64,000 bases of DNA, from positions 46,835,598 to 46,899,597 of the forward strand of contig NC_030385.2 in the NCBI RefSeq assembly GCF_001625215.2. Reading direction: 5' to 3'. This document shows positions 3,547 to 60,100 of this stretch, in pieces; the first letter of the stretch is position 1; every line of letters begins with the position of its first letter. The DNA is from Daucus carota subsp. sativus. Lineage: Eukaryota; Streptophyta; Magnoliopsida; Apiales; Apiaceae. A model generated the notes under the pieces. The model was not told the origin of the DNA. It did no database searches and saw nothing but the letters and a program-made list of their open reading frames with translations. A program made the position numbers and the translations under genes.

Positions 3547-4456
3547 ATATAGCGGAAGAGCGACAAAATCTAGATTGTGGCTAATTCCAGGCATTGAAAT
3601 TGTGAAAGTCAAATGCTGCTGTACTTACTCCACTAGTGCCGTTGAAATTAGCAAATGTTGAAACAGTTACAGTTTTTGCCAGAGATTGGCAAGAGGCCAT
3701 GGAACCTGTGTTAAGACTTATAGGAAAATGCATGAGGACAGAACTGTTTATAGATTTTTGTATATTGGAGAGGTTTAATTAAAATGGCCTCTGTATCCCT
3801 ATCAACCACCCCCCTTAAAATATTTCCATCAATGTCAACTATGTAACATGAATTTATGGTTTTTCTATTAAAAAACCATGTCTGTGTTCTTACTGACAGC
3901 TCCGGCAAGCATTATTTAGGTATTACAATTATTGAACAGCGAAAAATATCTTTAGGTTAAATGATGCATGATGGTTCTAACCTGAATGTTGTTTTAAATC
4001 TCATAATTACTCCGTTTGGGAATTAAGATTTGACTTAAAATTTTGAATCAAAAAACATGTTTGGATAGTTTAAAGAATTTGGATTTGGATTTTATTTCAA
4101 ATCCAAAACATTCAAATACTAACTGAATTTTGAGAATTTGAAATGACAACTCGAATAATTGAAATTCTCATTTGAAATGAAATTAGTGTTCTCAAATGCA
4201 ATCTTAATGCATTCGCAGTTCATGGACTACACGCGCTGGACTTTACTTTTAATGGGCCTGAACCTGAAGAGTTGGGGAGTTTAATCTGAATCATATCTGA
4301 AGTTGGGCTTTATGCTCCTCATTCCTGAACTTGAGCGCCCGGGCTCTCAAAAGGGAAAACCCTAATATTTTATATGTAATATTTGGTCAAAATTTGATAT
4401 ATTTAATCAAAAAAAAATCTAGTATAGAAAATATGGGGTGAAAGGAGCAAATAATT
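3547..4456. other. Noncoding gap
   Basis: No gene is seen here. The stretch 4010-4200 is rich in short inverted AAATTC/GAATTT-type matches and may be a degenerate MITE, but I could not define its ends. Confidence 0.4.
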
Positions 4457-5362
4457 TGTTAAAGATTTTACCGCTACTACTTTTTAATATTTCATGATTT
4501 GAAAAGATCTATAAGATCCTACCTAGATACTAATTTTTTAACGATGTTTTAAAAAAATTGGATTGCAAATTTTTTAAAATCCCGCACATGTCACTAAAAT
4601 CCAACCACATTCATCACACACATATGAATTTATGAAATCTAAAATAATAAATAATCTTTCTACCATGTGCTCGTGTGCATACATTAACCACTACTAATTG
4701 ATTGTACTAAATTTTTGTGCATGCAACAATCATTATTATTAAAAAAATATTAGAATTAATAAAAATCTTCCACATAACCAAAAATTGATTGTTATCGTAT
4801 GTCCATAAATATACGATAGGGCTGACTATAATCGTTGCCTTAATTGGAGCTGTAAAATATTACGTAAAATCTGTTGTACATTGATTGTATTGATATATTG
4901 ATTGGTTATAATTTAAAAACGATATATTGTTAGATTATTATAATAAAATATATCAATTTAATATGATAATAAATTATGTGTAATCTTACTACAAATTTTA
5001 AAAATAATATTTTTAACTATGTAATTAAAATACTTTAACATACAAATAAAATAAAAATAAAAAGCAGACATTCAAGAAGCACGGAAATATATAAATTCTC
5101 TATTAAATACTCGTAGATCAGGTTGAGAATAAAAACGTCCAACCGAATTAAAATGCAAAATCTCGTACATGTCGCTAAATTCCGGCCACGTGCATTAGAT
5201 ACAGCTGTCTTTTTGAAAATCTTAACTCAAAAGCACAAAAAGACAAGAAAATACAGTTGGGACTTGGTAAATGAAAAAGCGCGTGACTCACACTGCCCAA
5301 AATGGGCCTGGGTTAAGTACAAAACACCCTAATTTCTTCCCGTGTTCTCACTCGCTCCTCAA

Positions 5363-5370
5363 CTATAAAA
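5363..5370 (+). promoter_or_regulatory. TATA box inherited from the RAD16-like promoter
   Basis: CTATAAAA lies in a block shared with the intact RAD16-like gene (CTATAAAG at 62066-62073, minus strand) and with truncated copy 2 (11184-11191). Its conservation in all three suggests the truncated copies could still start transcripts. Confidence 0.6.
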
Positions 5371-5795
5371 CCCCCCTCCCCCCACCATACAAAACACATC
5401 TCACTTTGTAACTTTCTTTTACAAAATCCCCTAGAATTCTCTCTCGTTTTACTCCTGCTATGTGTCTAGTCCATCATTATTTTCTTTAAGATTGTCTTGA
5501 ACTCCGATACCATGTTAAGTAAAAATAACAACTCCCCGCATCCTCTATTTGAGGGTATATACATCGACTCTTAAATTTCTGAGTTTTGTTTTTGTATCTA
5601 TAAATCTTACAGTGGATTTGACTAATTTTACAGTTTTGTTTTATGTATGATTGTTTATGAAATGTTAGCCATGTATTTTATTTATTTATTCTAAACTGGT
5701 TTTCTCCGTGCAGATTCGAGCATGGCTGATGATAATGAGCTTGTCAGCAGAAAGAAAGAACAGAATTCCCATATTAATGTGGGAAGTATGTGTGG

Positions 5796-5881
5796 GAAGA
5801 GGAGCGGAAAAAGCTGTAGAGCCACCTGATCGATCTGAGAAGAGGAGCGGAAAAAGCTGTAGAGCCACCTGATCGATCTGA
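5796..5881. repeat. Perfect 43-bp tandem duplication
   Basis: Two identical 43-base units (5796-5838 and 5839-5881), each beginning GAAGAGGAGCGGAAAAAGCT, lie inside the coding remnant of truncated copy 1. Identity without visible change points to a recent event. Confidence 0.95.
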
Positions 5882-6540
5882 TTGTGCTTGAGAAGCACGA
5901 GGAGTCTCCGAATATGATTTTGTAATCACCACCTATTCAATCGTAGAAGATGAATATCGAAAAAATGTGATACACAAGTTCCAGTAGTGCTTGTATAGGT
6001 TTGAAATTATTAAACTAGCAGAAGATGTAACATGTTTATTAATATAAAAATATATTGTAATAATTAAATGTTGGTTCTTTGTATTTTGTACTTTTGTATT
6101 CTATATACTTGTTTTGTTGAAAATGCATTTCGTTTGTTATTGAGGACAGCTTTTCTCTATTTTATTATTCAGAATATTCTGTGTATTTGTTCTTTGTGTA
6201 AAAAAATATTATAAAGGCAAATATGGCTTATAAGTTTAAATCTGAAGAGAAGTTAAAAATCATACTCATTTCAGTGGATTAATTTTTGTAAAAAAAAATT
6301 GACTATATAGAAATATATAAGACCACTTTTAAAAATAATAAGTAATTATTTATTACAATATAAATAAATTTTATACTAATAAGTTGTAAAGTTCAAAAAA
6401 AATTATTCAAATACATAAATTAAAATTTCTTTCTGCTATAAATTAATTTTATTTTATAATCAGTTATTTAAGCACCAAAATTATCAGTGTGTTTTAAATT
6501 ATCGATAGGATTTATAAGCAGATGACGAAAATAAAAGATC

Positions 6541-7282
6541 CCAAAGAAAGGGGAGCGCCAGAATAAAGATAAAATGGAAATCTATACCGTTGTTCGTGCA
6601 ACACCCATTAATTCTACACTAGTATATGATATTGTCCGTTATTGATCATGACTAAACTCGCTTGAGTTTATTTTTGAATTTCTCCCAAAAGCCTCGTACT
6701 AACAGAGTTGTATTATTAGAGGTGTTCTGACTGTTGTTGATAACTCCTAACAATTTTTCTTCTCACACGGACTTGACACATGACGAATAGTGTTCCTCAT
6801 ACTCAAAATCCATTTGACTATCTTCCAGGTCCATACCGAAAGGCCCACTTGTCTTATACTTAAGCATATCCAGGATAGCACCGGTTCGACAAATGTTGAA
6901 TACAACCTCTCATATTCGAAATCCGTTTGACTATTTAGACCCATATCGAAAGGCCCACTTGTCTCATACTTAAACCTCTCCTAGATAGCCCAAGAGCTTT
7001 TTCCTGACCCGTTCGTCAGAGATCGTTAACAACTGTTAACATATGACTCACATATTATATGCACAAATTTCATTCTGAATTCATCCTTAAAAGTCACGTA
7101 TTACAAGAATAAAGTTGTTTTAACTCTCAGAAAACTAGCGGTATGGGATTAGAATTAGGAATCGAATTACGGAAGTATGGGATTAAGGTATCAATTCTGA
7201 TATCATGTATTTGATATTAGAACGGATGATATCATGCTAACTCTGAGTTAAGGTGTTACGCAACCAACATGGATGAGGTCAC
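6541..7282. other. Gap with two diverged tandem segments
   Basis: Two neighbouring segments, about 6797-6875 and 6913-6995, share ATCCATTTGACTAT / ATCCGTTTGACTAT, then CCGAAAGGCCCACTTGTC / TCGAAAGGCCCACTTGTC, in the same order. They are an old direct duplication of about 115 bases. Their origin is unknown and there is no credible ORF. Confidence 0.6.
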
Positions 7283-7662
7283 AAAGCCTTTGACACAATT
7301 TAGTGGATGGTTTCTATTTTTTGTTACAGGCAAAATAACACGATAGAGGTTGTTCTTTCCTAGTAATCTTCGTACAATTGGGCTTTAAGTGGCACTCTAC
7401 AAAATTGTGTTGGAGAACTTTACTCTCTGGTAAGATTTATGGTAGATGAGTTATCTTATATGGTACACAACTCAATTTATGGGTATTTATATCTAACTTA
7501 TTTTGTGGTTCCTCTGGCCCGGATCCTTTATCCTCTAGATTAATCCTTATTCTTACTACTTGTTTAAGGATTGTGATTGCCAGACGCTTGATTTCCAGAA
7601 AGATATGTTAATGTACTTGTAATACTCCACCACTTCATAATCCTCTTGTCAATCAATCAATT

Positions 7663-8373
7663 TAGGGGTGTGCATGGTGCGGTTTGGTGCGGTTCCGGAC
7701 ATTAACCGTTACCAAACCGATGAATGCGGTTCGGTTCGGTTAATCATCATTAACCGTAACCGCACCAATTAAAACGGTTTTTCGGTTGCGGTTAACCATT
7801 AGTCGGTTGCGGTTTTTTTTCGGTTTTTCCACTATTATTTATTACTCTTGTGCATAATGATTTTTTTAAAAAAAATATAAAATTTTCATGAACATGTACA
7901 ATATGTTCGGTTACTATTTACTATTGTTTCTATATGAGGATATAAGAAACATTACATACTTTCATCTAAAAAATCTTAATACACAATAAAAACTAAAACA
8001 TACATATTTTGATAAGAAATTAGATGTGAAGTTTAAATATTTGAGTGCCTGGTTATTTAAGTGACTTAGCAAGTATGCAAGTACGGGTCTGTGGAAGAAG
8101 AACCTCTATATAAAATTAGATGTGAAGTTTAAAAATGACTAAGGTGCTTTATTACTATTATTAATATATATATAAATATATTTATATATATATATTTCGG
8201 TTCGGTTAATTTCGGTGCGGTTTTAACATAAAACCGAAAATAAAACCGCACCACTAATTTCGGTTTTTTATCTCGGTTATTTTCGGTTTTATTTGCGGTT
8301 TGGTTTTTTTCGGTGTGGTTTTTCGGTTTTTTTTAGGTTTTTTTGCGGTTTCGGTTTTTTCTGCTCGCCCCTA
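7663..8373. mobile_element. hAT-type MITE with CGGTT-rich subterminal repeats
   Basis: The 711-base element starts TAGGGGTG and ends CGCCCCTA and is flanked by a perfect 8-base target duplication AATCAATT (7655-7662 and 8374-8381), the hAT signature. Its ends are packed with GCGGTT, CGGTTCGGTT and their complements, as expected of hAT subterminal transposase sites. No transposase ORF is present. It sits within the intron 5 homology of the RAD16 copy, and parent-like sequence resumes directly after it. Confidence 0.88.
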
Positions 8374-9351
8374 AATCAATTTGCCTCCAAATTCACAGCT
8401 TAACAACGTCAATATAATTGATAATCTCATGACAAAGCTGCTAGTTTCGGAAATTGCAAGCCATTTCTTAGTGTTCAATTCAGCTCCCAATGTTGAATCT
8501 GGTTTGCCAAGAACATGTTTATGATACATGCACCACAGTGCAAAGTTATTTCTGAGCATAAACACAATATTTTTGCGCCTTTAATAAATGCACTTCATAT
8601 AATTAGTACATAAAAAGTTGATATATACATATATAGATGCTAGAATATGGTAAGATTGATATAATTTGGATGGCACATAGTTTTCTTTATTGGCGACATC
8701 TGGCTATCTGAGCAGGTCCCAGGTCTTTCCCAGTTATAATGACTTCTTCACATATTTAAAAGCCGAAGAAAAGATAGTAGAACATAGTAGTCTTTTTAAA
8801 ATTTTATATTTTAGAAAAAAAATGTACACATAAACAATACAGTGCTGCTATCTTCTTTGTATGTCTTTAAATGTGTGTAGAAGTCAAAGTACAAATCGTG
8901 AGATGAAGCAACTATGTTTTTTCTTTATATGTGGTTAGAGTTCTATTTAAGTTACCTAAATATTTTTTGGGTCTTAAGATTGCTAAATCTGGTTTTGATG
9001 ATTATAGCTATAATTTTTTAAAATTTTTTCCCTTCATATTGCTAATTTTTAAAAAAGTGTGCTAATGTGTCACCCCTCCCACCATACTTATAAACTATCA
9101 TGTTGCTTCACCTGCACAATGCGACGAAGGCTTGCTTTGCAAGGTTTCACACTTATTGCTTGTTTTGCACACTTTTAAGAACCAGGTCAGTGGACTTAAA
9201 ATTAATGACATGTCTATTGACCGTTTCACGGGGCGTGGTAAATATTTTTGTGCATTCTATGTGGGGCACATTTTTTTAGGCACTTTTGCTAATCATATCA
9301 TGTATTTTGATTTGAGGATGTACTCAAAAATTTCATGCAAATTTCATGTGA

Positions 9352-9478
9352 CTTCTCAAATCATGTGTTACAGCAATATCATGGCACCTCTGCCAGGCTG
9401 AGCATGTCCAATAAAAATGGCAAGGACATGCTCGGCCTGGAGGTGCCATGATATTGCTGCAACACATGATTCGAGAAG
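9352..9478 (+). other. 127-nt foldback made of inverted copies of RAD16-like exon 7 (MIRNA-like candidate)
   Basis: Two arms of about 55 bases, about 9352-9409 and 9424-9478, are near-perfect inverted copies separated by a loop of about 14 bases. I count two mismatches, one G-U pair and one 3-base bulge in the stem. Both arms derive from exon 7 of the RAD16-like gene. The left arm, read on the plus strand, contains 22 bases (9372-9393) perfectly antisense to the parent mRNA (parent positions 57917-57938). The shape (short loop, long stem, one locus, related to a gene) is what is known for young plant MIRNA or hairpin-siRNA loci arising by inverted duplication of a target gene. Transcription and processing cannot be judged from sequence, so the structure is sure and the function is not. 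Confidence 0.6.
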
Positions 9479-9499
9479 TTTACTTCTTACACGTACTAA

Positions 9500-9838
9500 G
9501 AGCAACTCTATTTTTCCTTTTAAGTCATATTTCAACAAAACTAACACAAAAAATTGCTCCAACACTCTCCTTATGTCTCCCTACAAATTTAGGAGCCTAA
9601 AAACCTTCCTCTTTATTGAGGAGCATGAAATGCCTCCGAAACCAATTTTATATTAGTATATACTACTTCCTTCTCATGTAGTCAACCTTCATTAACATAT
9701 ATTGTCTATAATCATAATTTTGAAAAGAAGTAGAGACAAGTTGAGGAGGATTGTTGGAGTTTGGTGGTGATAATGACTAAAGAGTCTGTATAATAATCAT
9801 ATAGTTAGGAGTTTGTCGAGCAACTCTTGGAGTTGCTC
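9500..9838. mobile_element. Harbinger-like MITE inside the exon 7 copy
   Basis: The 339-base insert starts GAGCAACTC and ends GAGTTGCTC, with TAA on both sides (9497-9499 and 9839-9841), fitting a PIF/Harbinger-type 3-base target site. Exon 7 homology to the RAD16-like gene stops at CGTACTAA on the left and resumes as AGCGTGTAGATC on the right, which defines the insertion. There is no transposase ORF. The family call rests on the short ends and TSD only. Confidence 0.75.
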
Positions 9839-9970
9839 TAAAGCGTGTAGATCTGGTGATCTTGCCCTCCCTCCTAAAATGGTAACTTCAATACTTTCCT
9901 ATATTTTAAGGCACCAGCCAAGATATGCATATCTACTTCATGATTATGTTATATGCAATGTCGTTTGCAT

Positions 9971-10289
9971 GATTATGTTATATGCAATGTTGTTTTCGTT
10001 GTCAGTTCATGTTAAGATTTCATTAGAATTGTTAAGATTTTATTGTAAAATCATACAACCAGATTTTAATGAATTTTAAATAATTATTGAATACAATCAT
10101 ATTATACTCGTAATTGTGGATCATGATTAAGTACCTTTCAAATTTTAGATCTAATTTAATAAATTAATTGGATATCCCATAGTCTTATATTTTTGTATTG
10201 CGAATTGAATCAAATTTCATGAATAAAAATATTATGAAAAATTTGAATTGAATACACATCCTAATTATTATGAACAATTATAATAAACG
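9971..10289. other. Noncoding gap between RAD16 fragments
   Basis: AT-rich sequence with a short direct repeat near 9940-9990 (ATTATGTTATATGCAATG twice). I see no gene. Confidence 0.4.
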
Positions 10290-12660
10290 ATTAGTTAGAG
10301 ATTTTACCGTCTCTGCTTTTTAATATTTTAGGACTTACAAAAGATATATAAGATCCTAACCAGATACTAATTTTTCAAATATATTTTCAGATATGATTGT
10401 AAAATTTTTGAAATCTCTCACATATCACTAAAATCCAACCACATTCATGTACGAATAATGTACGTATTTCAAAAAAAAAATCCATATTTTTTTACTAAAT
10501 TAATGATGTAACACGCAAGAGGAAAATTATGATCGGGTGATTAATGTATATACAAGGTCTCATTATTGTTGGACTGAATGCAATTAATCAGACTTCGACA
10601 CAGAAAAAAATGAGATAATATTTTGATATACCTGTCATTTTCCGTCGTATCACCTTTGAATTTCTAAAAATCTAAAATATATCGAAATCGTTATATATAC
10701 TAGAAGATAAGGTTAAGAATAAAAATTTCCAACCAAATCAAAATGCAAAATCTCCTACATGGCACTAAATTCAATCATATTCAGCAGATAGAGCTGACTA
10801 TTTGAAAAACTTAACAATTTTTTAGAATCTCTACCAAAATCCAACACATCCATACACACTTGAATTTCTTAAAACTGAAAATAATATATCGAAATCTTTA
10901 TCAGATAAGGTTGAGAATAAAAACTGCCAACCAAATCAAAATGCAAAATCCCAGTAAATCTCACTAAATTCAATCATATTCACTGCATACAGCTGGCTTT
11001 CTGAATCTTACAGTAATAATTTTATAAAATCTCTCCCAACTAATCAATCAAATGCACAAAAAGACAAGAAATTACAGTTGGGATTTGGTCATTGCAAAAG
11101 CGCGTGATTTAACCGCCCAAACATGGGCTTGGGCCAAGTACAAAGCACCCTAATTTCTTCCCGTGTTCTCACTCGCTCCTCAACTATAAAAACCCCCTTC
11201 CCCCACCACACAACACATTTCATTTTGTAACTCTCTCTTGCAAAATCCCCTAGAATTCTCTCTCGTTTTACTCCTGATAGGTGTTCAGTTCATGATTATT
11301 TTCTCCCATAAGCCTGCCTTAAGGCTTAAAACCCCGAACCTCGATACCATGTTAAGTGACAATCTCCTCAAACCCCCGAACCTCAAATTCCTGTCGTCTC
11401 CATTTAAGGGTATACACACCAAGTCTTAAATTTCACAGTTTTGTTATTAAATCTATAAATCTTAAAGTGAATTTGACTAATTTTAGAGTTTTGTTTAATC
11501 AATGATTGTTTTTGAGATTTTAGCTATGTGTTCTATTTGTTTAATCTAAACTGGATTTCTCCGTGCAGATTCGAGCATGGAAAATCCCGACAAAAATTCC
11601 CATATTAATGTGGGAAGAGGAGCAGAAAGCTGGATGGGGATGGGTAAAATGGTGCAAGCAATTGCACTGGTACTAGCTAGGTTGCGAGAGGTTAAGGCAA
11701 CCCTTGTGGTATGCGCTCTGGTTGCTATGAGCCAGTGGGTGAACGAGATCAATCGATTCACCTAGTATATCATGGAGCCAATCGAGAAAACACGCTTCAT
11801 GAATTATGAGTTTTCTGACTATGATTTTATAATCACAACCTATTCGATTGTAGAAGTTCCAGTAGTGCTTGTATAGGTTTCAAATTATTAAGGGAGCAGA
11901 AGATGTACCATGTTTATTAAAATAAATTGTAATAAACAAATTGTTGGTCCTTTGTATTTTGTTTTGTACTTTGTATTGTGTAGTGGTATTTGTTTCATTT
12001 TTGTTTATTAACGAAGAGTATAGGCCTGTTTGGCAATCACTTTTCGGCCCGTTTGTATAAAAGAAATCGAATTTTAATATACGAGTATGGATGTGATCAT
12101 GTGAAGATAGAATAAAAATCGTAGCTTATTAGTGATTTAATATTATTTTTTAAAATATAATTTTACAAAATGTATTAAATCACTTAAAATATAATTTATA
12201 ATATTTAATTATTATATTAATAATTTTTATATGTAATAAGTTATAAATTACAAAAAAATTATTGAAACACATAAATTAAAAATTTCTTTCCACTTATAAA
12301 TTTCACAAGAGAATCAATCTTTAAAATGGAATATTAGAAAATAGAACTTCTCTCTAAATTTTAAATAAATTTTCATGATCCAAATCTAAATACATGTTTT
12401 TTACATCGCTAATTGTGTTCAAATAAATTTATTTGTTTTTTGCAATATTTTATGTGTTTAAAAATAATTTTAAAATATAATATATAAATACGATATTTTT
12501 TACGTCATAACTCTAATTAATAGTAGAAATAATACTACGAGTCTTTTGAAAAATTTTAAGTGAAACATAAATTATTATTATTATTTTTTTAAGTTGTATC
12601 CAATTATTTATGCACTGAAACTATCATCGTTCCAAATGCCGGTAGGATTTATAAGCCTTA
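10290..12660 (+). pseudogene. Truncated copy 2 of the RAD16-like gene, with a 62-codon ORF
   Basis: Same architecture as copy 1: flank, promoter with TATA at 11184-11191, leader, intron with acceptor before ATTCGAGCATGG, short ORF, then the shared 3' UTR-like end (AGTTCCAGTAGTGCTTGTAT). The ORF 11577-11765 encodes MENPDKNSHINVG... and then a clear remnant of the helicase ATP site region: GMGKMVQAIALVLA matches parent GLGKTVQAIALVLA, and VKATLVVCALVA matches LKATLVVCPSVA, then WVNEINRFT. The Walker A threonine is replaced by methionine and the rest of the motor is gone, so ATPase activity is not expected. The upstream region holds its own direct duplication of about 198 bases (GATAAGGTT at 10706 and again at 10904). 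It could be a transcribed mini-gene or a plain pseudogene. Confidence 0.8.
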
Positions 12661-14816
12661 GATATAAAAAAGGATTAGGTGAAAAATTCTCAATTGCACT
12701 CGATAAAATGAAATCAAGGGTTGATAGTCTTTGAGGATGGGGTTATGAAGAAGGATTGGGATTTGGGGGTGAAGAGATTCTAATCTCTCATCCGCCTAGC
12801 TAGTTTTAAGTATCCCCTCTTTTATTGTCTCAAAGGGCACCACTCCTCTCATACTGCCTACTGCGCCCTAGTTACTTGCAACTTCTGCAGGGACATGGGT
12901 CAAGCAGCTGGAACTTGTGCTGCAGATGAACGAGATAGAGTAAGAGGGCTTTCACAGCATCACAGTGGAGCTAATCCGCCCAGTAAAGATAATATAGTCG
13001 AAATGTGTTAATGGGAATGAACTACAAGCTCTCAACTTCAGCAATATGAACTTTTGGGTTTTCTGGAATCTCTCTTTGCAAATTATGCAATGAATTCGGT
13101 TCCGGACATCAGACATGGGACAACAGAAGATAAGCCCTTGTTACCAACATTATCCAATCGCGCTACTTACAAACTAGATATTAATTAATTATTTTCCAAA
13201 TGAACGATGAGACAGTTCTACTATCTGGTCGGTTGCATTGGATTAAAAAATCATTAGTATTAAACAATGCCCTTACCAGTAATTTGGATCCATTTGTTGT
13301 AAACTGATTGATTAACATGTTGCATAAAAAACAGGCCGTAATCGAATATAGAAATGTAAAAGAAGATTATTTTATCCCTACATTAAAATTCATCTAATTT
13401 GATACGACTTCTAACTGCTTCTTCCTTGAATTGTACCACGTATCCAACTACTATGGTTTATTCTAATACAATGTTCCTTAAATTTTGCTGCTAATCTCAT
13501 TTTAACATTTTTAAATTTGCTGCAAGCTCGGTTCCCTCCTGTGACTAATCACCATCTGTATTCTATCTCAGCTTTGTATATACTAATAAAGTGGAGTTGC
13601 ATGAGTAAGCATTCCAGAAAAAAAGGCTAAAAGAAGTCATTAGAATAATAAGATTAATGTTGGCATTTTAGTTTTTTGTTGTATATGGGAAGAGAGTGAC
13701 TCAAACGTGGTTGTAGACATGTATCTTTTCACAGTTCACATGCTCTTTTCATATTCTGAAACTGTTGCTCATTTTTTATACACATATTCAAGATTCTTGA
13801 ATTTTCTACAAGGCTTGCAAGACTGATCAAGATTTGAACTTTGAAGTGATTTCAAGATCAAAGACTCAAAGGTAGGTTCTCTCATGCACTTCACTACTGT
13901 TTGCCTCGTAAATCTCATAGATATTGTTACTTTATGTGCTTGTGGATGTGTGTAGATTCATGATAATGCAAGTTTTTAGATATTTGATATGGTATGTTCT
14001 GATTCGATGGACAGAGCCTGTTTTCGGAGTTTAGATTAATTAGCTAGGATTAGGTTCTTGCTGGTTGCACCTTATGTATTAGGAATTCTGTTTGTGATTT
14101 ATTGATTGCATATTTGCATATATAGACACACATATTGCAATCAAATTACTTATTTCTGCAGAATCTGGCTGGAACAGTAGAGAAAACTTGATACTTGAGT
14201 TGATAATTTCCCCAATTCATGCTTGTTTTGTGTGGAGATGTCCTCTATAGTCTATAGCATGGGAACTGCTGTATATAGTTAGAAGTATAAGTCCTGTATT
14301 GGCTTCATATCCGCAGTTCAGATGACTAGAAGTATACACTTTCAACTTACTTGATGCTGTTTTGGACTATAGTAGAGAGTAAAATAATGCATTTTGCTAT
14401 TGATGACGCGTTTCTTGGTTTCATATATTTTAAATTTATTTCTACCTACTATTTCATGACTTGTAATCTATACTATAATTTTTTATTAATCTGAGATTCA
14501 TAAGCAATGTTAATCGTGTACCAGTGCTTCAGGCATGCACCTATTTTAGAACAAGATGCATAACCAACTTTGTAACCATTATCGGTACATAAAGTGGCAG
14601 CTATGATAAATATGAATAAGGTAAGAATTTTATTCCATTTGGTGATTATATGTGAATGTGCTCTAATTAACACCACATGATCCATACACTTGTTTTAAGT
14701 TCTCACTTAGATGTTCTATAATTTATGTGACTTATGAAAGTCATCAAAAAAATTGCATGTGATTTTTTTTTTTTTTAAATTTCTGACAGGTGTAAATATC
14801 TTTCTGGGCCAGATAT
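12661..14816. other. Gap and upstream region of the OSCA gene
   Basis: About 12880-13010 has a less AT-rich patch reading DMGQAAGTCAADERDRVRGL in one frame, which I do not recognise. From about 13790 to 13871 there is a likely noncoding first exon of the OSCA gene ending CTCAAAG before GTAGGTTC; the matching acceptor is CTGACAG at about 14790, just before the start codon. Confidence 0.45.
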
Positions 14817-21639: not shown

Positions 21640-22480
21640 TTTTAAAAAATACTACCTTCCAGAATTATTTTTAAAAATACCTTTTCATAAAATTTTTTTT
21701 TCAAAAATACTGTTTGCAACTTTTGCAACCTCATTTGCAACTACAGGCGGCGCCAGCCGTGTTGCAACCTGATTTCCAGTTCCAGTTTTCAAATGTCATT
21801 TTCGACCTCATTTTCGGAATCGATATATATATATATATATATATATATCGATTCCGAAAATGAGGTCGAAAATGACATTTGAAAACTGTAACTCGAAATC
21901 AGGATTTGTAATTGCATATATGGTTGCATATGGTTGTATTCAGTTGCATATGGTTGCATTCAGTTGATTCTATTGTAATCTAATGGTCCCGCCAGGGGCA
22001 CACCAAACATCTGTTGTTACTTACAGTTTTCAGTTGCATTTAGTTGCAACTGAGGTTGCAAAAGTTGCAACTGCAGTTGCAACCTCATTTGCAACTTTTG
22101 CAACCTCATTTGCAACTTTTGCAACCTCATTTGCAACTATATATAGTTTTCAGTTGCATTTAGTTGCAACTGCAGTTGCAAAAGTTGCAACTGCAGTTGC
22201 AACTTCATTTGCAACCTCATTTGCAACTTTTGCAACTTACAGTTTTCAGTTGAACTAGTTGCAATTGCAGTTGCAACAGTTGCAACTTTCCATTTTTATT
22301 TGCAATTTTTGCAACCTTTGCAACCTCATTTGCAACTTTTACGGCTGCGCCGCCCAAGGTTGCAAATGAGGTTGCAAAAGTTGCAAATCGCATTTTTGAA
22401 AATTTTTTTTTATGAAAAGATATTTTTAAAAACAATGAAAAAGATGGTAGTATTTTTAAAAAACTAATTTTACAGATGGG
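21640..22480. repeat. GTTGCA-rich foldback element with long inverted ends
   Basis: The left end (about 21640-21765) and the right end (about 22335-22480) are inverted copies sharing AAAATACTACC, TTTTTAAAAATA, CTTTTCATAAAA, TTTGCAACTTTTGCAACCTC and a GGCGGCGC...AGCCGT block. The interior is filled with GTTGCAACT units in both orientations, some as CAACTGCAGTTGCAA palindromes. The arms of about 140 bases and lack of a gene suggest a non-autonomous long-TIR DNA element, perhaps Mutator-like, but I could not define a target duplication. It ends about 200 bases before the CAP-H start codon. Confidence 0.7.
21769..21902. repeat. Near-perfect 134-bp palindrome
   Basis: Two arms of about 60 bases sharing CTGATTT, TTTTCAAATGTCATTTTCGA, CCTCATTTTCGGAATCGAT meet at an (AT)n centre near 21836. 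Only a few positions near the outer ends differ. It is inside the GTTGCA foldback and would extrude as a hairpin or cruciform. Confidence 0.9.
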
Positions 22481-47718: not shown

Positions 47719-48273
47719 CTCCCTCCGTCCCAATATACATGTCCTTTGTGGAAAAAAAATTTGTCCCAAATTACTTGTCCTTTTCTTCTTTCAATGCAAA
47801 ATTTAATGACAATTTTTCAAAATTTTGTTTATAATTGTTATTTCCAAGATTTGACTTTCTAAAATTAGTACTTTCTCCATTCCTTTTTAAGTGTCATTTT
47901 TTGACTGGGTTTAAATTCCAAATTAAGTGTCACATTTATATTTTCAAGACAATTATTTATGTTCTCAATACAAATGTATATTCCTTTTACCTCAATACCC
48001 TTACCTTTGAAACTCTCATTAAAATTTATTCATGGTAGTTTGATGGACAAAATTAGAAAATAAAACTTACATTAATGACAATATAACCAAATAATTGCAC
48101 ATCTTAATAGTTGTGCCGAGTCAAAAAATGACACTTAAAATGGAATGGAGGGAGTATCTATTCTCTCTTTCCAATGCATTAAATGAGGTATTTTGTTGAA
48201 ATTGTTATCCAACTAACTTTTTCCTTGATATGTGTTTTTTTTAAAAGAGACATGTAAATGGGGACGGAGGGAG
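47719..48273. mobile_element. Middle Stowaway MITE of a triple nest
   Basis: It starts CTCCCTCCGTCCCAATATAC and ends with the inverse of CTCCCTCCGTCCCCATTTAC, flanked by TA (47717-47718 and 48274-48275). It is inserted into the outer element and itself holds the inner one. ACATGTCC/GACATGT near both ends are paired. Confidence 0.88.
47871..48154. mobile_element. Inner Stowaway MITE of a triple nest
   Basis: This 284-base element starts CTTTCTCCATTCCTTTTTAA and ends with the inverse of CTCCCTCCATTCCATTTTAA. The ends go on matching through GTGTCATTTTTTGACT, an inverted repeat of more than 35 bases. TA lies on both sides (47869-47870 and 48155-48156). Confidence 0.9.
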
Positions 48274-57100: not shown

Positions 57101-60100
57101 ATAAATCGTATCTGATATATACTATAGCTAGGCAAACTTACTCAAAATGCCACCATAATAATATCCACTTTAACTGAACAAGATGATTAAATGCTTTAAT
57201 CTGGCAAACCCAATTTTAACAAATCATCTAGACCAAAGTGCCTGTTTTTTCTTGAAAATGAGCCCTAGAATTTGGAAGTTCAAATGTAATTAAGGGTCCC
57301 TATTTGGCTTCAGTTTATTCTGCTTTAAAGTATTTTCCCAAAGCATACTTAGCTCAGTTACCATCTTCAGTAATATAATATATCACAGTTTGAGCAAATT
57401 TATCAATTCCAAAGTACCAGTCCATGTGTAATTACATCTATAAAAGTGACACAATGCATTGTCCAAATGACATCTATGGACTATGGTAGTATGACAATAA
57501 CCAATCAAACTAGAACTAACACCCAGGTAGAATTGAAAGACGTAAAGAGCCCAATAGACGTATATATAATGAATATATAAATTTATTTTTTTAAAAAAGG
57601 TCCAGCAATTAATGATCTCTAAGCAAACACCTTAAACCAAATGAGAATGAATTAGTTGACTCACGTGTTAAATTGTGCCTGACTTTCATTGTACAATGAG
57701 GTGTAATAATCTTCTTCCTTGATATCCAATGATTCCCGTCTTAAAAAGATCTGACAAAAGAATATATTGTATAACATACTGAAGCAGATATGCAAATCTT
57801 AGTGCACTGCAGCATAAGAAAGTATTGAAGCTACCGTTTTAGGAGGAAGTGCTAGATCATCACATCTACCCTTCTTAGTACGCCTAAGGAGTATTCCTTT
57901 CAAAATTTTGTGTTTGAGCAATATCATGGCACCTCTGCGAGACCCAGTATGTCCTTGTGATTTTATTGGTGTGGCAATATACTTCACAGCCAATATCACA
58001 TGAAATTTGCATGAAAACTTTTCAGTACGTACTCAAATTAAAAAGCATATGAGAAACCTAAGCTTTTGTGACTTACTTTATTCCACCAGCAAAAGTGTCT
58101 TGTATTTGCATGAGTGCAGTGCAAACAATATTCACTTTCAAAACTGCAAGATAATTAATGACATACAAGATATTAGATAACAAACAGTTTATTGTGTGTA
58201 AAGCACACTAGAGCAAGATGATTTATTTGTTTTTTGATCAAGAACATCATGGTCATACACCTGATGATTGACAGAGGATTTCTTACTTATTTTTCGTGCC
58301 ATCATTAGAACATTAGAGCAGTCAAAATATAAATAGAAAAACACATGCAATATACACAACAATTTAGTTCCACTGAGATTTTGCCTACCCTATAAAAATC
58401 AAGGCGGGCTAAACACCTACCGATTTTTTTTGCTGCTTGCTTCGCCTAGACAATGCGCACAAATATTTTCCACACCCCGTGAAACGGTGAACAAACATGT
58501 CATTATTTTCAAGTCCATTAGCCTAGTTATTAAAAGCTTGCAAAGAAAGCAAATAAGTGTGGAACATTGCAAAGCAAGCCTTCATCGCACATTCAGGTGA
58601 AGCAACACAACAGCCCACATTTTTTTAAACCTTAGTAGATTTTGAAAAAGAAATCTAAAAGAGTTATAGGGGTAGTCATCAAAACCATATTTAGCAATCT
58701 TAAGACCCCCAAATATATTTAGGCGGCCTCAATAAAACTTTAACCACATCTAAAGAAAAAACATACTTCCTCCCCATTTTTTGTCACTTTGACTTCTGCA
58801 AACATTTAAAGAAAAGCAAAGAAGATAGTTGCACATAGTATTAATATCAAAAATCTGTTTCTGTAAAAATGTTTATTAGTTTATTCCAAACAATAAAATT
58901 TTGAAAGATATTTCTGTGCTACTTTTTTTTTTCAGCCTTAAAGTATGTGAGAAGTCATTGTGACTGGGAAAGAGTTGGATACATCCTCATATGTAACACC
59001 AACAAAGAAAACCATGCCCTTTCTAGATTATCATCTAGAAGGCGCTTACTTGGGGTGGAGATCCATGAGACAGAATTTGAAGGTGTTGAGGAGCATGACA
59101 ATAATCTTGATAAAAAATTTGGAAACTTTGGTGAAGAAGATGATTAATTTAACACAAAAAAGGAACACACTTTAGTCGCTAGTTTATCTCTTCTATTATC
59201 AAAAATACACATTCTATCTTGACTCTTATGACTGTTTTTTATTAATTTAGTAATACTATGTTCATCAATCTTGCCATGTTGTGGCATATAAGTAGGTATA
59301 TATCAACTTTTTATGTATAATTTGAAGCGCATTGCGCAAATGCATTGGGAAAACGCATTGCGCTTATGCTCATGGATACCTTTGCACTTGGTGCGTGTTT
59401 CACATTTAATAACTATGAGTGCAATCATGATTAGAGAAAGCAACATATTTTGGACAAACCAGATGCAACATTGGCAGCTGAACTGGACATTAAGACATGA
59501 CGGACTAAAGATTCTAGCATACTAAAGAACATATCTTGCAATTTCCGAAATTAACAGATCTGTCAAGAGACTGTCAATCATATTGACTTTGTTGAGCTGT
59601 GAATTCAGAGGCAAGTTCATTAATTAACAAAAAAAATATGGACGGTGGTGTACTGGTGTTCAAGTACATTAACTTATATTTCGGGAAAGATAATTTAATC
59701 ATGAACAATACCTAGGATCAAGTTCTGTGCAATCACAGTCCCTACAAAAGTAGTTAGAATAAGGACCAATCTGGAGGAAACGGATCTGTGCCAAAGAAAC
59801 CAGAAAATAAATTACATATCAACAACGACAGTATAAATTTTATACCATATAAGATAACTCATTTACATATATCTTACCAGAGTGTAAAGTTCTCCAACGC
59901 GATTTTGAATAGGAGTGCCACTTAAAGCCCATTTATAGGGAGATTCCAGGGAAAGAACGGCTTTTGTGGTGTAACCATGTCGATCTTTGATATAATGAGC
60001 CTGTAACAAAAAATAGAATCCATCCAGTAAATTTAGGTATTAATGTTTAAGTCAAACACTAAAAGGCGCCTAAAAGAGCTGTAGAATTTGTTTTGACTCT

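What the first reader, a model, noticed from the sequence alone, without database searches (positions are those of the whole stretch)
9352..9478. Candidate young MIRNA or hairpin-siRNA locus aimed at the RAD16-like gene
A 127-base foldback with a stem of about 55 bp and a loop of about 14 bases is built from two inverted copies of exon 7 of the RAD16-like helicase gene. On the plus strand its left arm holds 22 bases (9372-9393) perfectly antisense to the mRNA of the intact gene (57917-57938). Plant MIRNA genes are known to arise by inverted duplication of part of their target gene, and this has that geometry with the target 48 kb away in the same window. If transcribed, Dicer-like processing could silence a DNA repair and chromatin helicase. 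Function is inference.
Basis: partly seen in the sequence, partly recalled or inferred. Interest (0 to 1): 0.88.

Follow-up and report, generated by a model that had tools for sequence, protein, structure and literature searches.

The report
Hairpin inside a dead helicase gene
A broken copy of a plant DNA-repair helicase gene contains a near-perfect 53-base-pair hairpin, apparently made in one DNA-copying accident from its own exon; it is the kind of sequence that can become a microRNA gene, but nothing here shows that it makes small RNAs or silences anything.

Summary
The foldback is real: 9352-9478 folds into 53 pairs (+ strand) or 54 (- strand) around a 14-nt loop, far beyond shuffles. The 22-mer 9372-9393 equals 57917-57938 and is antisense to the RAD16-like mRNA. 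The foldback lies inside a collinear, decayed RAD16-like pseudogene (about 5236-9953, + strand), where the left arm replaces 26 bases spanning the exon-7 acceptor. The arms share 9-10 differences from the intact gene, so both come from the pseudogene's own diverged exon, most simply by one replication template switch or a foldback insertion during break repair. A predicted protein from an unnamed contig (P0121) reads through the same foldback. Both of its differences inside it can restore arm pairing, and they imply that the copied exon already held a stop codon. Change inside the foldback (2 of 42 codons) matches that outside (6 of 106), so no constraint is visible. No Rfam family matches at gathering score. 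No small-RNA or transcript data were available. Best reading: a drifting hairpin, raw material for a MIRNA or hairpin-siRNA locus; targeting of the intact gene is possible but undemonstrated. New member of a known kind.

The parts
9352..9409 (+). Left arm: inverted copy of the pseudogene's own exon 7; antisense to RAD16-like mRNA
   Evidence: Only antisense block of 18 (9358-9409 against 57903-57954, 82.7%); 3-way alignment; pairing
9372..9393 (+). 22 bases identical to 57917-57938, so perfectly complementary to the RAD16-like mRNA; three of them are the unpaired bulge of the stem
   Evidence: Exact comparison; the only one of 212 22-mers with 0 mismatches to the gene
9410..9423 (+). 14-nt loop, sense pseudogene sequence
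   Evidence: Dot-bracket; sense alignment
9424..9478 (+). Right arm: exon 7 of the pseudogene in its own place and orientation, with a 3-nt deletion that makes the bulge
   Evidence: 9408-9501 against 57969-57873, sense, 76.5%
9351..9352 (.). Junction 1: intron-6 sequence jumps to the inverted arm; 26 bases present in the intact gene (57995-57970: 14 of intron 6 with the 3' splice site, 12 of exon 7) are missing here; about 1 bp microhomology (A)
9408..9410 (.). Junction 2: inverted arm returns to sense at CCAATAAAA; about 2 bp microhomology (CC)
5236..9953 (+). RAD16-like pseudogene 1 (5'-flank-like block, scraps of the exon-3 region, exons 4-5, introns, exon 7), host of the foldback
   Evidence: 10 sense blocks collinear with 62201-57770 of the - strand gene
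11034..12715 (+). RAD16-like pseudogene 2, 5' part only
   Evidence: 7 sense blocks
9499..9842 (.). Short element with inverted ends (GAGCAACTC/GAGTTGCTC, flanking TAA) splitting exon 7 just after the foldback
   Evidence: a second copy in other surroundings is suggested by P0122
54195..61935 (-). Apparently intact RAD16-like SNF2/RING helicase gene (ends approximate), the putative target; exon 7 at 57981-57835 contains the site
   Evidence: SNF2-rel_dom 2.7e-29 and Helicase_C 1.7e-12 above cut-off, RING models below cut-off, no family for the exon-7 frame alone; some homologues named RAD16 or rhp16; frames and splice sites read by eye, no full coding sequence assembled

Best explanation
A local inverted duplication inside a diverged, now dead RAD16-like paralogue. 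SHOWN by sequence: after the copy had diverged from the gene, about 57 bases of its exon 7 stand in reverse complement just upstream of that exon, where 26 bases carrying the intron-6 acceptor and the first 12 bases of exon 7 are missing; this makes a 53-54 bp hairpin. INFERRED: both changes came in one step, by a replication template switch (four switch points) or foldback synthesis at a double-strand break with end joining. INFERRED: the exon was already broken, because the ancestral state of both arms reads TAA in the gene's frame. INFERRED: the hairpin has since drifted neutrally. If the pseudogene is transcribed, the RNA would most likely be diced into mixed 21-24-nt siRNAs acting mainly on the pseudogene itself; a 21-22-nt product of the left arm could in principle cut the mRNA of the intact gene. 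So it is raw material for a MIRNA, not a demonstrated MIRNA.
For: 17 of 18 blocks sense and collinear, one antisense. Three-way alignment, 54 ungapped columns: 41 identical, 10 where both arms differ from the gene alike, 1 left-only, 1 right-only, 1 three-state; plus a 3-nt deletion in the right arm. Of the 10 shared differences 9 remain if a 1-base gap is put at its best-scoring place. In the 16 codons from GGACAT on, 6 of 7 codon differences between left arm and gene change the amino acid, one of them to TAA. The missing 26 bases include the acceptor. Relative P0121 keeps the foldback; V at codon 84 puts T at 9460 opposite A9370, so both arms there carry the TAA state, and R at codon 64 allows C at 9399 opposite G9434. 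No constraint: 2 of 42 codons inside, 6 of 106 outside, Fisher p = 1.0. Precedents: template switching can make perfect stems in one event (PMC8794818, abstract and passages); foldback inversions at breaks with 0-5 bp microhomology (PMC11724301, passages).
Against: The pre-event sequence is not held, so the 26-base loss could be a separate deletion. Junction microhomology of 1-2 bp is no more than chance would give. With each arm's core cut out, the rest is only weakly similar to the intact exon (33 and 14 of 1000 shuffles as good). A 1-base deletion that shifts the frame scores best inside the arms (50 matches of 62), but 49 if put just beyond them, so it does not date the event. The relative's bases are inferred from a predicted protein; silent differences are invisible, and R at codon 64 could also be AGA, which would not pair. 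The lack of constraint rests on 8 changes.
Confidence: 0.85

Rival explanations
1. A young MIRNA or hairpin-siRNA locus that really silences the intact RAD16-like gene in trans through the 22-nt site at 57917-57938.
For: Stem geometry; perfect 22-nt site and, on target, 25 plus-strand and 19 minus-strand 21-mers with 4 or fewer mismatches, of 214 tested on both strands; foldback kept in a second genome; pseudogene-linked MIRNAs exist (PMC3237417, abstract and one section) and young loci may give siRNA-like products (PMC1790633, passages).
Against: No expression data. The foldback changes at the same rate as its flanks. The perfect run has chance 0.015-0.039 given the observed mismatches and sits in a protein-coding motif. 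The window-specific change at 9460 adds a mismatch to the + strand stem, and three unpaired bases lie within the 22-mer near its 3' end.
Confidence: 0.06
2. The foldback is a foldback transposon or MITE that captured gene sequence.
For: It is a near-perfect inverted repeat and a MITE-like element lies next to it (9499-9842). Many rice miRNA genes are MITE-related (PMC3237417, abstract).
Against: No target-site duplication was seen by eye around 9352-9478; both arms are pseudogene exon and the right arm lies in its own collinear place; in the window only exon 7 of the gene matches the foldback. The neighbouring element has its own ends.
Confidence: 0.03
3. Two inverted copies of the intact gene's exon 7 were inserted from the donor gene (the target-gene inverted-duplication reading of the first reader).
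For: Both arms are homologous to exon 7.
Against: Nine or ten differences from the gene are shared by both arms; the right arm is part of the collinear pseudogene.
Confidence: 0.04

Closest known systems
Inverted-duplication model of plant MIRNA birth (MIR161, MIR163 and others in Arabidopsis; PMC1790633 passages, Allen et al. 2004 recalled)
   Same: Foldback arms homologous to a protein-coding gene; near-perfect stem; candidate site in a gene of the same family
   Different: The donor is a dead paralogue's own exon rather than the target gene; no small RNA shown; with the core removed the arms reach only 33 and 14 of 1000 shuffles, short of the p<0.001 used in that paper (my test is similar, not identical)
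Pseudogene-derived hairpins and siRNAs in rice and Arabidopsis (PMC2708354 passages; PMC3237417 abstract and one section)
   Same: RNA hairpin built from pseudogene sequence whose parent gene could be hit in trans
   Different: Those are two neighbouring inverted pseudogenes (PMC2708354 asks for stem over 100 bp, loop under 2 kb) with small-RNA reads; here one pseudogene carries a 53-bp foldback of one exon, without read data
Template-switch mutations that create RNA stems (PMC8794818 abstract and passages; four-point model, PMC7954356 passages)
   Same: Reverse-complement copy of adjacent sequence replacing a short stretch; a perfect stem made in one event
   Different: An arm of about 57 nt in a plant pseudogene; single event without a sampled pre-event relative
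Short foldback inversions at double-strand breaks (PMC11724301 passages)
   Same: Templated inverted insertion, junction microhomology of 0-5 bp (median 2), sizes 2 to about 150 bp (most under 14)
   Different: Yeast, experimentally cut; there one end is primed by a 10-bp imperfect inverted microhomology, for which I did not look here

Membership tests
Plant MIRNA gene | Foldback with a miRNA/miRNA* duplex of few mismatches in a short hairpin (criteria recalled) | tested here: met
   127-nt hairpin, 53 pairs, two single mismatches, one 3-nt bulge; this does not discriminate from a plain inverted repeat
Plant MIRNA gene | Precise processing: one abundant 20-24-nt duplex in small-RNA libraries | not testable with these tools
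Plant MIRNA gene | Member of a described family | tested here: not met
   0 Rfam matches at gathering score in the whole window; the best sub-threshold match on 8500-10500, MIR8562, scores 48.1 against a cut-off of 211. A new MIRNA would also fail this
Plant MIRNA gene | Stem conserved more than its surroundings between relatives | tested here: not met
   P0121: 2 of 42 codons differ inside, 6 of 106 outside, Fisher p = 1.0; low power, and young MIRNAs may lack constraint
Inverted-duplication (gene-derived) foldback | Both arms homologous to one protein-coding gene beyond the small-RNA site | tested here: inconclusive
   Arms intact: 0 of 1000 shuffles; core removed: 33 and 14 of 1000, weak. 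Collinear flanks still place the right arm in exon 7
Inverted-duplication (gene-derived) foldback | Donor is the gene it would target | tested here: not met
   Shared differences place the donor in the pseudogene
Template-switch / templated inverted insertion | Arm is the reverse complement of adjacent sequence at one point, with flanks otherwise collinear | tested here: met
Template-switch / templated inverted insertion | Pre-event allele or relative lacking the foldback | not testable with these tools
   No plant DNA collection; two protein searches across the foldback gave one sequence spanning it, P0121, which has it
MITE / foldback transposon | Target-site duplication and multiple copies | tested here: not met
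   No duplication seen by eye at 9352/9478; only exon 7 of the gene matches in the window; the rest of the genome could not be searched

The most novel reading that the evidence does not exclude
A plant small-RNA gene caught near its birth: one templated copying error inside a dead paralogue made a 53-bp hairpin that has survived the separation of two genomes, and its left-arm products now repress the intact RAD16-like repair helicase through a perfect 22-nt site. That would mean MIRNAs can start from the target's dead cousin instead of from the target itself, with the origin readable base by base.
Probability: 0.06. Interest if true: 0.65.

Novelty: new member of a known kind. Interest (0 to 1): 0.36.

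Why it matters
The first long, perfect stem of a new MIRNA is usually inferred from older, eroded loci (general knowledge). Here the source exon, the displaced bases, the likely order of events (divergence and a stop codon first, hairpin later) and a second carrier genome can be read from sequence. The locus is therefore a clean test case for hairpin birth in a pseudogene, and for whether such a hairpin is diced at all. As a regulator of a repair helicase it is unproven and most likely ordinary.

Tried and rejected
Rfam at gathering score (0 matches) and at E up to 1 on 8500-10500 (12 matches, all below cut-off; 9 lie on the foldback and look like generic long-hairpin matches; that some of those families are animal ones is recalled). 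A transposon origin was considered and rejected (no duplication seen, collinear right arm). Outside the foldback and exon 7, the best match in the window to any of 214 foldback 21-mers has 3 mismatches (37852). P0001 (99% identical to the exon-3 frame) was first taken for a possible transcript; it reads past the exon-3 end into intron 3, so it is probably genomic and gives no expression evidence. In one search the 59-column/14-mismatch setting (0.0068) was a rough guess; the measured setting is 57/12. In one search the two arm-mismatch lists at the end used a wrong coordinate sum and were discarded; the pair table above them is correct. On checking, I withdrew a frameshift as proof that the exon was dead before the event: the gap could lie just beyond the arm. 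The shared TAA state took its place.

Literature: six searches answered, 66 rows listed; none is on this locus by its title or the start of its abstract. A template-switch-to-miRNA paper that I recalled is not held and is not used.

Full report
WHAT IS THERE. The stretch 9352-9478 folds on the + strand into a 53-pair hairpin with a 14-nt loop, two single mismatches (9358/9472 and 9370/9460) and one 3-nt bulge: -92.5 kcal/mol against a shuffle mean of -32.6, 0 of 200 shuffles as good (pairs counted, partners). The - strand folds slightly better (-97.7, 54 pairs). The 22-mer 9372-9393 equals 57917-57938; of 212 22-mers from both strands it is the only one with no mismatch to the gene. A search for inverted repeats with arms of 40 or more bases lying within 500 bases found 9 pairs in the window, this one included.

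THE SETTING. The putative target is a SNF2/RING helicase gene on the - strand (about 61935-54195). SNF2-rel_dom E = 2.7e-29 and Helicase_C 1.7e-12 are above cut-off; RING models are below cut-off and the exon-7 frame alone matches no family. Of 690 homologues of the exon-3 frame, 120 were listed; those that bear an organism's name are plants, and some are named RAD16 or rhp16. Exon 6 ends ...HFCWWNK, and exon 7 is 57981-57835, YIATPIKSQGHTGSRRGAMILLKHKILKGILLRRTKKGRCDDLALPPKT. The left part of the window holds two decayed relatives on the + strand. BLASTN of 4000-13500 against the gene region gave 18 blocks. Seventeen are sense and collinear within two series: 5236-9953 (10 blocks, the last, 9847-9953, after an insertion) and 11034-12715 (7 blocks). 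The one antisense block, 9358-9409 against 57903-57954, is the left arm.

HOW IT AROSE. Just before the left arm the pseudogene matches the gene up to 57996; the right-arm side resumes at 57969. The 26 bases between (57995-57970) are absent: 14 bases of intron 6 with its acceptor and 12 bases of exon 7. In their place stands about 57 bases of inverted exon 7. A three-way alignment of the intact exon and the two arms gives 54 ungapped columns: 41 identical, 10 in which the arms agree with each other against the gene, 1 left-only, 1 right-only, 1 with three states; the right arm also lacks three bases. The pseudogene lacks one base relative to the gene in this stretch. The best place for that gap is inside the arms (50 matches of 62), which leaves 9 shared differences, but a place just beyond them is only one match worse (49), so I do not use this frameshift to date the event. 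The arms were therefore copied one from the other after the pseudogene had diverged. Six of 7 codon differences between left arm and gene in 16 codons change the amino acid, one of them to TAA, which suits an exon no longer under selection. Arm-arm divergence is 3 of 54 (JC 0.058); the ten sense blocks of pseudogene 1 differ from the gene by 12.5 to 36.6%. The hairpin is thus younger than the gene copy, unless later template switching has homogenised the arms. Junction overlaps are A (1 base) and CC (2 bases), compatible with a template switch (four-point model, PMC7954356 passages; PMC8794818 abstract and passages) or with foldback synthesis and end joining at a break (PMC11724301 passages: 0-5 bp, median 2; sizes 2 to about 150 bp, most under 14). 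These agents cannot be told apart here.

A SECOND GENOME. A protein search with the open frame that enters the left arm (9066-9398) returned 1 hit of 2 candidates: P0121, 148 aa, from a 769-base unnamed ENA contig. It is probably not a real protein, but it reads the other genome's DNA across 9210-9653, through both arms, the loop and the start of the inserted element. That genome may belong to a congener or to another line of the same species; I cannot tell. It differs at 8 of 148 codons: 2 of 42 inside the foldback and 6 of 106 outside (Fisher p = 1.0). Inside, the window's TGA at 9399 is R there (CGA or AGA by one change; CGA would pair with G9434), and GCA at 9459 is V (GTA by one change, which pairs 9460 with A9370). 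The simplest reading is that both changes fell in the window's lineage and that the other stem is more perfect. The second site also shows that both arms once carried the state that reads TAA in the gene's frame (AAA in the gene), so the exon probably held a stop codon when it was copied. The 9358/9472 mismatch (Q opposite S) and the 3-nt bulge (PLPG, SAWRC, no length change) appear to be shared. The foldback therefore predates the separation of these two genomes, and there is no sign that pairing is being protected. A last search with P0121 gave 2 hits of 5 candidates, itself and P0122, which shares the inserted element in another setting.

WHAT IT DOES. If the pseudogene is transcribed on its own sense strand, the RNA carries the hairpin. 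PMC1790633 (passages) says that new foldbacks may first give heterogeneous siRNA-like products and that DCL1 has limited activity on perfectly paired RNA. PMC12825306 (passages) says that young loci usually depend on DCL1 and/or DCL4 and that inverted repeats are processed by DCL2, DCL3 and/or DCL4. PMC13128112 (abstract and introduction) reports that proto-miRNA-like precursors with mixed processing can still be functional. So a mixed siRNA source is the likeliest active form, hitting mostly the pseudogene. Against the intact gene, 25 plus-strand and 19 minus-strand 21-mers of 214 have 4 or fewer mismatches at the exon-7 site, 2 of them none. A run of 22 identities has chance 0.015 (57 columns, 12 mismatches) or 0.039 (52 columns, 9 mismatches) given the mismatches, before allowing for protein constraint on the gene side.

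KNOWN OR NEW. Gene-derived foldbacks, pseudogene hairpins with small RNAs (PMC2708354 passages; PMC3237417 abstract and section on de novo origins) and template-switch stems are all described. In PMC3237417 the pseudogene route is two adjacent inverted pseudogenes; here it is one exon copied back on itself. None of the 66 rows listed by six searches is on this locus by title or abstract start; the library lacks most subscription journals. I class it as a new member of a known kind, unusually well resolved in origin and undemonstrated in function. Its own genome could not be searched.

Noticed in passing
21768-21903: Palindrome with two abutting 68-base arms, 97% complementary, centred on a TA run, nested between inverted flanks 21640-21767 and 22330-22462 (79.9%); looks like part of a mobile or repeat element.
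   Followed up: partly
22020-22390: Dense array of inverted and direct TTGCAAC/GTTGCAA repeats with several overlapping inverted repeats.
   Followed up: no
47869-48156: Inverted ends of 41 bases, 90% complementary, 206 bases apart, resembling a Stowaway-type MITE (resemblance recalled).
   Followed up: no
9499-9842: Element with ends GAGCAACTC/GAGTTGCTC and flanking TAA splitting exon 7 of the pseudogene; protein P0122 suggests another copy elsewhere.
   Followed up: partly
5115-5725 and 10903-11580: Two copies, 76.1% alike over 682 aligned bases, that include the part resembling the 5' flank of the RAD16-like gene: the 5' end of the gene seems to have been duplicated more than once.
   Followed up: partly
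P0121 (unnamed 769-base contig): The other genome's frame is open through the whole foldback, where the window has TGA at 9399-9401; probably a random open frame in a pseudogene, useful as a DNA witness.
   Followed up: yes
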